NCBI RefSeq assembly: GCF_030409755.1 | Contig: NZ_JAUFQE010000002.1 | Coordinates: 1,798,001-1,862,000 of the forward strand | DNA length: 64,000 nucleotides | Origin: Vibrio lentus | Lineage (GTDB): Bacteria > Pseudomonadota > Gammaproteobacteria > Enterobacterales > Vibrionaceae | Reading direction: 5' to 3' | Shown here: positions 44,912-58,330 of the stretch, one piece after another | How the letters are laid out: each line of letters begins with the position of its first letter | How positions within the stretch are numbered: position 1 is the stretch's first letter | Translations under genes and position numbers: made by a program | Notes under the pieces: model-generated | Told to the model about the DNA's origin: nothing | Database searches by the model: none | The model's input: the letters and a program-made list of their open reading frames with translations, nothing else

Positions 44912-47035
44912 ATGGCAGAGCAATTTGCTAAAGCTTGGGAAGATTTTGCTGCAGGTGAGTGGCAAAGCGAAGTAAACGTTCGTGATTTCATTCAAAAGAA
45001 CTACACGCCATATGAAGGCGACGAGTCTTTCCTAGTTTCTGAAGGTACTGAGGCGACTAATACGCTTTGGGCTTCGGTAATGGAAGGTATCAAACAGGAA
45101 AACGCAACTAAAGCACCTGTAGATTTCGATACTTCTGTTATCTCTACCATCACTTCTCATGATGCGGGCTACATCCAAAAAGACCTTGAAACAATTGTTG
45201 GTCTACAAACTGAAAAACCACTAAAACGTGCAATCATCCCTAACGGTGGTGTACGTATGGTTGAAGGTTCTTGTAAAGCATACGGTGAAACTCTTGACCC
45301 GATGGTTTCAAAAATCTATTCAGAATACCGTAAAACACACAACGCTGGTGTTTTCGATATCTACACGCCTGATATCCTAAAATGTCGTAAGTCTGGTGTT
45401 CTGACTGGTCTTCCTGATGCTTACGGCCGTGGTCGTATCATTGGTGATTACCGTCGCGTAGCACTTTACGGTATTGATTTCCTAATGAAAGACAAAGCAG
45501 CTCAATTCGCTTCTCTACAAGAGCGTTTCGAGAACGGCGAAGATCTTGCAGCTACAATGCAACTGCGTGAAGAGATCTCTGAGCAACATCGTGCTCTAGG
45601 TCAAATCAAACAAATGGCAGCGACTTACGGCTTCGATATCTCTGAGCCAGCTCAATCTGCTCAAGAAGCGATTCAGTGGACTTACTTCGGCTACCTAGCT
45701 GCTGTTAAATCTCAAAATGGCGCTGCAATGTCTCTAGGTCGTACTTCGACTTTCCTAGACATCTACCTAGAGCGTGATATCGCTGCTGGTAAAATCACAG
45801 AAGACCAAGCTCAAGAAATGATCGACCACTTCGTAATGAAGCTGCGTATGGTTCGTTTCCTACGTACTCCTGAGTACGATGAGCTATTCTCTGGCGACCC
45901 AATCTGGGCAACAGAGTCTATGGGTGGTATGGGCATCGACGGTCGTACGCTAGTAACGCGTTCGAACTTCCGTTTCCTTAACTCTCTATACACAATGGGT
46001 CCTTCTCCAGAGCCAAACATCACTGTTCTTTGGTCTGAGCAACTGCCTGACGGCTTCAAACGTTTCTGTGCGAAGGTATCTATCGATACTTCTTCTATCC
46101 AGTACGAAAATGATGACCTAATGCGTCCTGACCTTGATTCTGATGATTACGCAATCGCTTGTTGTGTATCACCAATGATCGTTGGTAAGCAAATGCAGTT
46201 CTTCGGCGCTCGTGCTAACCTTGCAAAAACTATGCTTTACGCAATCAACGGCGGCGTTGATGAGAAGCTTAAAATGCAAGTTGGCCCAGTTGGCGACAAG
46301 ATCACTGACGAAGTACTTAACTACGATGACGTAATGGGTCGCCTAGACACATTCATGGACTGGTTAGCTAAGCAATACGTGACTGCGCTAAACAGCATCC
46401 ACTACATGCACGACAAGTACAGCTACGAAGCGTCTCTAATGGCTCTTCATGACCGTGACGTTCGTCGTACTATGGCTTGTGGTATTGCTGGTCTGTCTGT
46501 TGCTGCTGACTCACTGTCTGCAATTAAGTTTGCTAAAGTGAAGCCAATCCGTGATGAAGACGGTATCGCAACTGACTTCGAAATCGAAGGCGATTACCCT
46601 AAATACGGTAACAACGACTCTCGTGTAGATGATATTGCTTGTGAACTAGTTTCTACGTTCATGAACAAGATCCGTAAGCTTAAGACTTACCGTAACTCTA
46701 TCCCTACACAGTCAGTTCTTACTATCACGTCTAACGTGGTTTACGGTAAGAAAACAGGTAACACTCCAGACGGTCGTCGTGCTGGCGCTCCTTTCGCTCC
46801 TGGTGCAAACCCAATGCACGGTCGTGATGAGAAAGGCGCTGTAGCTTCACTAACGTCTGTAGGTAAACTACCGTTTGCTGACGCACAAGATGGTATCTCT
46901 TACACGTTCTCTATCGTGCCAAACGCACTAGGTAAAGAACAAGACAGCCAACGTGCTAACCTTGCAGGCCTAATGGATGGTTACTTCCACCACGAAGCTG
47001 GCATTGAAGGTGGTCAACACCTATATAGTTGGTAG
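44912..47035 (+). pseudogene. pflB: Pyruvate formate-lyase PflB, C-terminally truncated by the element
   Basis: 707 residues: 704 native PFL residues ending GGQHL, then YSW and a TAG supplied by the inserted element. The catalytic pair Cys417-Cys418 (AIACCVSPM) is intact, but the last 54 residues with the radical-bearing glycine (RVSGYAV) are cut off and lie at 58160-58330. Joining the pieces restores a 758-residue protein of normal length with no other damage. PFL makes acetyl-CoA and formate from pyruvate without oxygen; alone this truncated form cannot hold the glycyl radical. A grcA gene 178 bases downstream on the same strand may supply the missing domain, so the gene may still be functional as half of a split enzyme. 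Confidence 0.95.
47017..47022 (+). repeat. Left 6-bp junction repeat (attL core)
   Basis: ACACCT at the point where the pflB reading frame leaves its homologs. The identical 6 bases occur at 58159-58164, and the bases on either side differ, so the repeat is exactly six. Confidence 0.85.
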
Positions 47036-47095
47036 TTAACTCCTTTAAAAAGTCTGACCTAAAGGCATTTTTACCTGTAAAAACAATAAGTAATC

Positions 47096-47186
47096 AGGTC
47101 ATCAAAATGATTTTAGAGCACACTTTTAAATAGGTCATCAAAAAAGTAAAAATGATGACCTCCAAGAATAAAAAAGTCATCAAAAT
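47096..47186. repeat. Cluster of AGGTCATCAAAA repeats at the left end
   Basis: Direct copies at 47096-47107 and 47132-47143, an inverted GGTCATCA copy at 47153-47160 and a variant AAGTCATCAAAA at 47174-47185. A further inverted copy sits at 54287-54299, upstream of the IntA-like gene. Likely binding sites of an element-encoded protein, or regulatory sites for grcA; no protein assigned. Confidence 0.75.
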
Positions 47187-47212
47187 TAAGTCAACTTTAG
47201 AAGGTAAATATT

Positions 47213-47590
47213 ATGATCCAAGGTATTCAAATTTCAAAAGCAGCAAATGACGAACTAATCAATTCAATCTGGCTGCTAGACACAGAGAAGAACGAAGCAC
47301 GTTGCGTAGCAGCAGCTTCAGGTTACGAAGCAGACCAAGTTGTTGCTGTCGATGCACTGGGTGAATTCGAAAGCCGTGAAGTGGCAATCGAAACTGCTCC
47401 GAGGATCGAAGGTGGTCAGCACCTGAACGTCAATGTCTTGAAAAGAGAGACTCTAGAGGACGCTGTAGCACACCCTGAGAACTACCCTCAGCTAACTATC
47501 CGTGTATCAGGTTATGCTGTACGCTTTAACTCTCTGACTCCAGAGCAGCAGCGTGACGTTATTGCTCGTACATTTACAGAATCTCTTTAA
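47213..47590 (+). CDS. grcA: Autonomous glycyl radical cofactor GrcA (YfiD), carried by the element
   Basis: 125 residues. Residues 1-62 are the GrcA-specific N-terminal part; residues 63-125 (APRIEGGQHLNVNV ... RVSGYAVRFNSL ... ARTFTESL) are a PFL glycyl-radical domain with Gly100 as the radical site. In E. coli this protein replaces the oxygen-cleaved C-terminus of PFL and is activated by PflA. Here it lies inside the element that removed that domain from pflB, on the same strand and 178 bases after the truncated gene. Its 3' half is very similar in DNA to the displaced pflB tail. AAGG-type ribosome site; strong terminator after the stop. Confidence 0.95.
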   Translation: MIQGIQISKAANDELINSIWLLDTEKNEARCVAAASGYEADQVVAVDALGEFESREVAIETAPRIEGGQHLNVNVLKRETLEDAVAHPENYPQLTIRVSGYAVRFNSLTPEQQRDVIARTFTESL

Positions 47591-47605
47591 GATTTAGCAC
47601 ATAGT

Positions 47606-47637
47606 AAAAAGCCACGGTTAAAATCTGTGGCTTTTTC
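47606..47637. terminator. Bidirectional terminator grcA / coiled-coil gene
   Basis: AAAAAGCCACGG/TGTGGCTTTTT hairpin between the convergent grcA and recombinase operons. Confidence 0.85.
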
Positions 47638-47646
47638 ATACATTAG

Positions 47647-57364: not shown

Positions 57365-57558
57365 GCAAAGAACTCTGACACTTATTTATTCAATTAATTC
57401 ATAGCACTGACACGCACTAGACTTAACCATTTAAATGTGTCGCTTCGCCCCAACTTCAAAGTTGGAATGCAATTATCCGCGAACAGAGGTAAAACTCTCA
57501 ACAGATAACAATGACTTGTACTGAGTGGCTCTGCTAGTCCTCAGAACAAGGATACAGC

Positions 57559-57657
57559 ATGGATCTAGCCAGTGTGTATTTGGCGGTAAGAGTCGCAACG
57601 GCAATCGTTGTGCTAGTCACTTCTTGCGTAAAACTTTACAAAGAGCTGCGTAAGTAA
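57559..57657 (+). CDS. 32-residue single-TM peptide
   Basis: MDLASVYLAVRVATAIVVLV followed by a Cys and a basic tail ending KELRK. The central hydrophobic run spans about residues 5-23. AAGGA lies seven bases before the ATG. Size and layout recall membrane-acting toxin peptides or small regulatory membrane proteins; no homolog is recognised. Confidence 0.4.
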   Translation: MDLASVYLAVRVATAIVVLVTSCVKLYKELRK

Positions 57658-57883
57658 ACTATAGGTCAAATGAAAATCAAAACTTACCCTTAACGGGTCT
57701 CAGGACAACCAAAGTGAGTTAGTCTTGAATACATCGAAAAATAAATCTTAAATTAGTAGCGTCTTCACCTCGCATGATTGCCGAGTTTGGCGCTCTCCTC
57801 ATAAAAACGAGAACTCACATTCAGAAAGAATAGCAGCGGTCATATTGCGCCAATTATGTGTAAATAATTCAGCCTCGTGTTGA

Positions 57884-58108
57884 TCATGCAACTACCTCCA
57901 CCGTACAGTGGTGAAGCCATCCATTTTCAACCAAGCTTCCAGCTTGAAATGTTCGATTCGAGGCATAATTCCACAGAAATAGATTTCCACTTACACTTTT
58001 TACACCTGTAATCACATGTAAAGTTCTAAGGTCGGATTCAACCTCTGGTTGCTCAACTATAGATTTCTTTTTTTGTTTTTTATCTTCCAAAAAACAGAAA
58101 GTCATCAT
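57884..58108 (-). CDS. Hypothetical 74-residue ORF, weakly SymE-like
   Basis: Starts ATGATGACT in a context (GGAGGTTTTCTCGAAAA) that resembles the start region of the IntA-like gene. Residues 28-74 (RTLHVITG ... FQAGSLVENGWLHHCTVEVV) loosely resemble the beta-strand, LxGxWLxxAGF and VxV pattern of SymE toxins, but the last strand is missing. It may be a truncated SymE-like toxin or a chance frame. Confidence 0.3.
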   Translation of the reverse strand: MMTFCFLEDKKQKKKSIVEQPEVESDLRTLHVITGVKSVSGNLFLWNYASNRTFQAGSLVENGWLHHCTVEVVA

Positions 58109-58158
58109 TTTTTCGAGAAAACCTCCACTTTTTTCGTGAATTTCAAACCCCCAACTTT

Positions 58159-58164
58159 ACACCT
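58159..58164 (+). repeat. Right 6-bp junction repeat (attR core)
   Basis: ACACCT, identical to the left junction, directly before pflB coding sequence resumes (TTAACGTTAACG). Confidence 0.85.
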
Positions 58165-58330
58165 TAACGTTAACGTTCTTAACCGCGAAACTCTTGAAGA
58201 CGCAGTTAAGCACCCAGAGAAATACCCTCAGCTAACAATCCGTGTATCTGGTTACGCTGTACGCTTCAACTCTCTGACTACAGAGCAGCAAGCTGACGTA
58301 ATCGCACGTACATTTACTGAATCTCTATAA
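58160..58330 (+). pseudogene. pflB: Displaced C-terminal tail of pflB (glycyl-radical domain)
   Basis: 56 codons plus stop encode HLNVNVLNRETLEDAVKHPE ... RVSGYAVRFNSL ... ARTFTESL, the exact continuation of the truncated PFL at 44912-47035. The radical glycine and flanking residues are intact. It has no start codon of its own. The open frame does extend 37 codons left into the element, with only a TTG at 58049 as a possible start, so expression is doubtful. Confidence 0.93.

What the first reader, a model, noticed from the sequence alone, without database searches (positions are those of the whole stretch)
44912..58330. An integrative element splits pflB at its glycyl-radical domain and carries grcA, the spare part that can replace it
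Seen directly: PflB is cut after GGQHL (residue 704 of 758), its last 54 residues lie 11.1 kb away, and an intact grcA on the same strand starts 178 bases after the truncated gene, inside the element. PFL and GrcA become homologous at this same GGQHL. Known: E. coli GrcA/YfiD restores activity to PFL whose radical domain was lost, and PflA activates it. Inference: the element targets a conserved fermentation gene and pays for it by converting one polypeptide into a two-part enzyme (PFL core plus GrcA). Most elements that enter gene ends restore the end in frame; compensating with a separate protein would be a different strategy, and could even make PFL more oxygen-tolerant.
Basis: partly seen in the sequence, partly recalled or inferred. 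Interest (0 to 1): 0.95.

Follow-up and report, generated by a model that had tools for sequence, protein, structure and literature searches.

The report
Mobile element carrying its target's replacement
A likely mobile DNA element in Vibrio sits in the same two codons of the fermentation-repair gene grcA and carries an intact spare grcA, and in this genome a second identical copy also splits the related fermentation-enzyme gene pflB, which would leave that enzyme dependent on the element's spare part if it works at all.

Summary
In detail: an 11,136-bp element (47024-58159) with an intact grcA splits pflB after GGQHL. The interpretation changes. A second copy, identical over 11,159 bp, sits in the host's own grcA at the same codons, and related elements (Tfp about 43% identical where held) sit there in three other Vibrio genomes. 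All 5 insertions found carry grcA; in those three genomes it is the only GrcA found at E<=1e-40. So grcA is the usual target, and pflB a secondary hit at a site sharing 34 of 36 bp. [quoted passage not shown] The 6-bp spacer is the His-Leu codons and, by the published SE rule, suggests a jump from grcA to pflB. Carrying a copy of the target gene is already published (bcp, recA, tgl). New here are grcA as target and cargo, and the jump into the enzyme that GrcA repairs. PFL rescue is untested: a published PFL cut at 695 was activated 32-fold less with YfiD, and this genome also lacks NrdD, so the split may simply be tolerated.

The parts
44912..47035 (+). pflB 5' part: PFL core, 704 native residues plus a short element-encoded tail (YSW)
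   Evidence: TIGR01255 1234.9 bits; aligns to E. coli PFL up to residue 705
47018..47023 (+). 6-bp spacer at the intA-distal border (attR in SE usage), CACCTA = His-Leu codons; equals the grcA codons of near relatives, not their pflB codons (CACCTT)
47024..58159 (.). Integrated element, 11,136 bp; imperfect inverted termini; identical copy at C2:3611363-3622498
47091..47185 (.). Three direct repeats around AGGTCATCAAAA near the left end, probably recombinase arm sites (inferred)
   Evidence: similar GTCAT repeats near the ends of the relatives' elements, seen by eye
47213..47590 (+). Carried grcA, intact, 125 aa; same strand as the broken host gene and directly downstream of it
   Evidence: TIGR04365 221.5 bits; 79% DNA identity to the host grcA
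47647..48159 (-). srap (small fourth core gene, 170 aa from TTG)
   Evidence: 24% identity, E 7e-6, to Srap of SE-6283
48122..50323 (-). intB, large tyrosine recombinase with R-H-R-Y (motif read by eye)
   Evidence: 28% identity, E 3e-94, to IntB of SE-6283; PF00589 below its cut-off
50363..52768 (-). tfp, homolog of the SE protein that lacks the full catalytic motif (read by eye)
   Evidence: 26% identity, E 8e-66, to Tfp of SE-6283
52779..54314 (-). intA, tyrosine recombinase with R-H-R-Y (motif read by eye)
   Evidence: 30% identity, E 9e-40, to IntA of SE-6283; PF00589 29.5 bits
54605..55366 (-). IS5-family transposase (passenger)
   Evidence: NF033580 261 bits
55666..56547 (+). Mrr-like restriction endonuclease cargo
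   Evidence: PF04471 78.6 bits
56585..57364 (+). 259-aa cargo protein, no family found
58160..58165 (+). 6-bp spacer at the intA-proximal border (attL in SE usage), CACCTT = pflB His-Leu codons of near relatives
58160..58330 (+). pflB 3' stub encoding the last 56 residues, with the radical motif RVSGYAV
59700..60440 (+). pflA, PFL-activating enzyme, intact
   Evidence: NF008356 462 bits, cut-off 375

Best explanation
[quoted passage not shown] in all five insertions found it sits in the His-Leu codons of the radical-domain motif GGQHL (four in host grcA, one in pflB), and every copy carries an intact grcA that likely replaces the one it breaks. Shown: identical double insertion in this genome, same codons in three other Vibrio genomes, carried grcA in 5 of 5. 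Inferred: the element copies itself out as a circle carrying the 6 bp from its intA-proximal border and inserts with that hexamer at the intA-distal border. Inferred: in this host it first took the native grcA and then copied itself into pflB, whose site is nearly the same. Inferred: the carried grcA has a ribosome-binding site (by eye) but probably no promoter of its own, so it would be transcribed from the promoter of the gene the element broke (grcA, or here pflB). Predicted and weakest step: PflB core (residues 1-705, E. coli numbering) plus element GrcA, activated by PflA, would give at best inefficiently activated PFL; without GrcA there would be none, because no other intact PFL-type radical domain was found in the genome.
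For: Two copies identical over 47006-58164, one in pflB and one in host grcA at the same codons. G044, G046 and G126 have related elements (IntB 52-53%; Tfp 42-44% in G044 and G046) in host grcA after residue 71, each followed about 190 bp later by an intact carried grcA, then srap, intB and, where the contig continues, tfp and intA. A GrcA match at E<=1e-40 occurs in 220 of 227 genomes, once in each except G000, which has two (both carried); in G044, G046 and G126 the single one is the carried gene. The intA-distal hexamers all read His-Leu in frame (CACCTA, CACCTA, CATTTG, CATCTT, CACCTT); the intA-proximal ones are CACCTT in pflB and CACCTA in the four grcA cases. Uninterrupted grcA of the three nearest relatives checked (98.4% identical) has CACCTA, and pflB of G043, G041, G119, G044 and G046 has CACCTT. 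This fits the SE rule in PMC9345347 and suggests grcA to pflB. pflB and host grcA share 34 of 36 bp at the site. Core-gene homology and order match SE-6283. Carried grcA of G044 and G126 are 99.2% identical, their host grcA 88.1%; carried copies fall outside the clade of the four host genes. No plus-strand promoter- or terminator-like site between the broken gene and carried grcA.
Against: No transposition, circle or transcript was observed. SE filing rests on 24-30% identity to one archetype; inverted termini are poor in G044 (6 of 9). Five insertions in four genomes are few, and G126 is read from two contigs. Only one pflB insertion is known, so splitting of pflB together with grcA is a single case. 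The direction is not certain: the spacer boundary of the window element is inferred, and 7 of 33 pflB genes read have CACCTA too, so a foreign donor is possible. grcA is dispensable in some relatives: G105 and G145, both listed as 100% complete, have no GrcA at 1e-40. Synonymous divergence of the carried copies at the site did not clearly exceed that between host genes. The GrcA trees have many weak forks.
Confidence: 0.82

Rival explanations
1. The element specifically evolved to enter pflB and to turn PFL into a two-part enzyme, the carried GrcA being selected to complement truncated PFL.
For: PFL and GrcA share the site, GrcA is a known PFL spare part (PMC8683613), and the carried gene is on the pflB strand directly behind the core.
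Against: 4 of 5 insertions are in grcA, and pflB is intact in G044, G046 and G126. The spacer suggests a grcA-type donor. The cut leaves 10 of the 38 residues (696-733) that PMC8683613 found important for YfiD binding and activation; removing all 38 lowered activation 32-fold.
Confidence: 0.1
2. The pflB insertion is a tolerated loss of function: this strain no longer depends on strictly anaerobic growth, and the split PFL is inactive.
For: No NrdD in G000 (PF13597 best 21.5 bits against a 26.2 cut-off; a sister's NrdD gives only E 0.04), whereas 24 of 24 same-genus relatives sampled have both a 761-775 aa PFL and a 709-736 aa radical enzyme of NrdD size.
Against: The PFL core, pflA and carried grcA are open and full apart from the insertion. 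219 of 227 genus genomes keep an intact PFL-type radical domain. The insertion is too recent for decay to show.
Confidence: 0.45
3. grcA is chance passenger DNA picked up from a past host and does not matter to the element.
For: Mobile elements often carry unrelated genes; many phages carry grcA too (1,534 of 50,697 phage records matched).
Against: The window element shares no other cargo seen with the relatives, and G044 and G046 share only part of theirs, yet grcA is kept intact at the same place and strand in all five, and it is homologous to the very gene the element breaks.
Confidence: 0.06

Closest known systems
SE-6283 / Tn6283 and relatives (Vibrio; PMC9345347, PMC5991714)
   Same: Same four core genes in the same order, 6-bp spacer rule, target specificity inside a protein gene, carries an intact homolog of the gene it breaks (bcp)
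   Different: Target and cargo are grcA; carried gene is convergent with srap; other cargo lies on the intA side; proteins only 24-30% identical; a second copy in a gene that shares the target's domain (pflB)
recA mobile element RME of V. cholerae (PMC4405046)
   Same: Inserted in a host gene and carries a divergent full copy of it
   Different: Reported to excise and restore recA; its recombination genes were not compared here; target recA
Tn552-II of S. aureus (Tn554 type; PMC12486829)
   Same: Target-gene-like gene on the element, suggested there as a possible rescue; spacer brought in from the donor
   Different: tnpABC, 7-bp spacer, Staphylococcus; PMC10214605 notes that Tn554 lacks a Tfp counterpart
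GrcA/YfiD spare part for PFL (PMC8683613)
   Same: Carried GrcA is homologous over its full length to E. coli YfiD (6owr); replaces the lost radical domain
   Different: There the damage is oxygen cleavage at Gly734; here it would be a genetic cut after residue 705

Membership tests
SE (strand-biased circularizing integrative element) | Core genes intA-tfp-intB-srap in that order | tested here: met
   All four homologous to SE-6283 on pSEA1, same order
SE (strand-biased circularizing integrative element) | RHRY in IntA and IntB, not in Tfp | tested here: met
   Alignment with SE-6283 read by eye
SE (strand-biased circularizing integrative element) | 13-19 bp imperfect inverted repeats at the ends | tested here: inconclusive
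   11 of the first 14 bases match in the window element, 6 of 9 in G044 (counted by eye)
SE (strand-biased circularizing integrative element) | 6-bp spacer: attB hexamer at the intA-proximal border, donor hexamer at the other | tested here: met
   Five insertions; donors themselves not seen except inside this genome, and the window spacer boundary is inferred
SE (strand-biased circularizing integrative element) | Strand-biased circle formation without an empty site | not testable with these tools
   Needs PCR on the isolate
GInt | ginABCD proteins, a cluster separate from SE proteins | not tested
   GInt proteins were not compared; PMC10214605 reports that the two groups separate
GrcA (autonomous glycyl radical cofactor) | Full-length match above the curated cut-off | tested here: met
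   TIGR04365 221.5 bits, cut-off 170
Working two-part PFL | Glycyl radical on GrcA and PFL activity with the truncated core | not testable with these tools
   Biochemistry needed

The most novel reading that the evidence does not exclude
The element's landing codons are exactly where PFL and GrcA become homologous, so whichever of the two genes it hits, the spare part it brings fits the piece that is left: replaced whole in grcA, docked onto the core in pflB. This Vibrio would then run PFL as an obligate two-part enzyme, its radical subunit supplied in the same operon by a mobile element.
Probability: 0.3. Interest if true: 0.85.

Novelty: new variant of a known kind. Interest (0 to 1): 0.62.

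Why it matters
It adds a second target-and-cargo pair (grcA) to the SE family, which suggests that carrying a replacement of the broken target gene is a recurring strategy of these copy-out elements rather than a curiosity of bcp. The pflB copy is a natural experiment: a genome whose only PFL-type radical domains found are the element's GrcA and two stubs, so the idea that a spare part can sustain PFL in a living cell can be tested in an unmodified strain. It also shows a way for a site-specific element to sit in core metabolic genes.

Tried and rejected
Rejected: grcA as ancestral neighbour of pflB (second copy). Rejected: assembly artefact (each copy is flanked by the halves of one gene, with different intA-proximal hexamers).

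Led nowhere: genome-contig scan with the 3-row IntB alignment found no relative; a second scan found only V. tapetis; viral contigs none; plasmids hold only distant SEs, best 35% (IntB) and 32% (Tfp); in 394 genomes of the order no close relative besides G000 itself (8 matched at 1e-60; best other 571 bits). Self-comparison of seven distant SE loci found no copy of a target gene, but their ends may lie outside the fetched stretches. Of the eight stretches fetched only G126 was analysed. Self-immunity of the carried grcA by synonymous changes: inconclusive. One search lists 33 IntB proteins including the query (Vibrio, Photobacterium, unnamed); for most of the others the surroundings could not be fetched, so whether they carry grcA is open. 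Three IntB or Srap records share a longest-contig length with a GrcA record (80441, 9254, 10932; only 120 of 1,122 GrcA rows were listed), a hint only.
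Full report
What is there. pflB in the window is cut after GGQHL; 704 residues of the 707-aa product are native and run to E. coli PFL residue 705. The missing 54 residues lie 11.1 kb downstream, and pflA beyond them is intact. Between the halves are an intact grcA, four genes on the minus strand, an IS5-family transposase, an Mrr-like nuclease and a 259-aa protein without a family.

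A second copy settles what is element and what is host. A search of the same genome for glycyl-radical domains found five places: two identical grcA genes, the pflB core and two C-terminal stubs. The second grcA and stub belong to a copy of the same element at C2:3611363-3622498 (-), identical at every base from 47006 to 58164 of the window. That copy lies in the host's own grcA, cut after residue 71 at the same GGQHL. So grcA at 47213-47590 is cargo, and the original grcA and pflB of this strain are both broken. No other PFL-type radical domain was found; 219 of 227 genomes of the genus have an intact one at E<=5e-35.

Relatives. Tfp found two relatives of 43% identity among 227 genus genomes, and IntB a third among 329 family genomes: G044, G046 and G126. 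All three elements are in host grcA at the same codons, with an intact carried grcA about 190 bp after the break and srap and intB behind it; tfp and intA follow in G044 and G046, while in G126 the contig ends inside intB and the right stub is on another contig. Element lengths are 19,777 bp in G044 and 23,207 bp in G046. Their pflB frames are intact (763 aa). So 5 of 5 insertions carry grcA, 4 in grcA and 1 in pflB. A GrcA match at E<=1e-40 occurs in 220 of 227 genomes, once in each except G000; in the three relatives that one is the carried gene, and G000 has two carried copies.

Mechanism. The 6 bp between element ends and host are exactly the His-Leu codons. At the intA-proximal border they are CACCTT in pflB and CACCTA in the four grcA cases. 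Uninterrupted grcA of the three nearest relatives checked (98.4% identical to the host gene) has CACCTA; of the other three checked one also has it, one has CATCTA (96.6% identical) and one CACCTT (78% identical); 24 of 33 grcA genes from other species have CACCTA. pflB of G043, G041, G119, G044 and G046 has CACCTT; of 33 pflB genes read, 15 have CACCTT and 7 CACCTA. At the other border the hexamers are CACCTA, CACCTA, CATTTG, CATCTT and CACCTT: all in-frame His-Leu, and in four of five cases different from the hexamer at the intA-proximal border of the same copy. In SEs the native hexamer stays at the intA-proximal border and the donor's arrives at the other (PMC9345347, passages read; definition of the borders in PMC10214605, section read). 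Under that rule earlier donors also sat in His-Leu codons, most simply of a GGQHL gene, and the pflB copy came from a donor with CACCTA, most simply the grcA copy of this genome; the reverse direction would have left CACCTT in the grcA copy. The spacer boundary on the window's left end is inferred from the family comparison, and a foreign donor cannot be excluded. pflB and host grcA agree at 34 of 36 bp around the site, which explains the second target.

Expression. No plus-strand sigma-70-like site and no plus-strand terminator was found between the broken gene and the carried grcA (a crude scan). The stretch holds three AGGTCATCA-type repeats, probably recombinase sites. The carried gene therefore likely relies on the promoter of the gene the element broke. 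This is inference.

Is PFL rescued? GrcA is homologous to E. coli YfiD over its full length (6owr). In PMC8683613 (passages read) YfiD-repaired oxygen-cleaved PFL was as active as PFL; a PFL ending at 695 was activated 32-fold less, with similar turnover once activated, and the abstract concludes that this truncation prevents rescue. The natural core ends at 705 and keeps 10 of the 38 residues concerned, so I expect weak rescue at best. Against a need for rescue, the strain has no NrdD, while 24 of 24 same-genus relatives sampled have a PFL and a 709-736 aa radical enzyme of NrdD size (the one read, in G046, I name NrdD from its sequence by recall). I leave 'tolerated loss' at 0.45 and 'obligate two-part PFL' at 0.3.

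History of the cargo. In the DNA tree carried grcA of G044, G046 and G126 form one clade (100/100) and that of the window is a separate long branch (with P0089, 99/93, in the protein tree); the host genes of the four genomes group together (95/94). G044 and G126 carry genes 99.2% identical while their host genes are 88.1% identical. The carried gene thus travels with the element and was not copied from the present hosts. Many forks of these short trees are weak.

What is known. All four core proteins are homologous to SE-6283 on pSEA1 in the same order, with RHRY in IntA and IntB only, by eye. [quoted passage not shown] PMC5991714 (passages) proposes partial compensation and compares it with the recA mobile element (PMC4405046, passages); Tn552-II carries a target-gene-like gene (PMC12486829, part of the text). 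The strategy is therefore known. I found no mention of grcA or PFL as an SE target: the main text of the SE host-range paper has no 'formate' or 'glycyl', and the papers listed (20 of 173, 15 of 744 and 10 of 216, seen as listings) showed none. Supplements were not readable, so a table entry may exist.

Noticed in passing
whole genome G000: No anaerobic ribonucleotide reductase NrdD is found in this genome, while all 24 same-genus relatives sampled have a radical enzyme of NrdD size; with the split pflB this suggests reduced anaerobic capacity.
   Followed up: partly
L037:4531-10018: The related element in G044 carries genes matching SIR2, HerA and BovA anti-phage defence models (PADLOC); the window element carries an Mrr-like nuclease.
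   Followed up: partly
58049-58330: An open frame (93 aa, TTG start) runs from the element's right end into the pflB stub and would encode a small radical-domain protein; the frame is shorter in G044 and G046 (71 aa open).
   Followed up: no
G105, G145, G176: G105 and G145 (listed as 100% complete) have no GrcA at 1e-40, and G176 (95% complete) has no PFL-type radical domain at 5e-35, so neither gene is strictly universal in the genus.
   Followed up: no
phage records: 1,534 of 50,697 phage records match GrcA, 14 of them at 80-95% identity to the element's protein.
   Followed up: no
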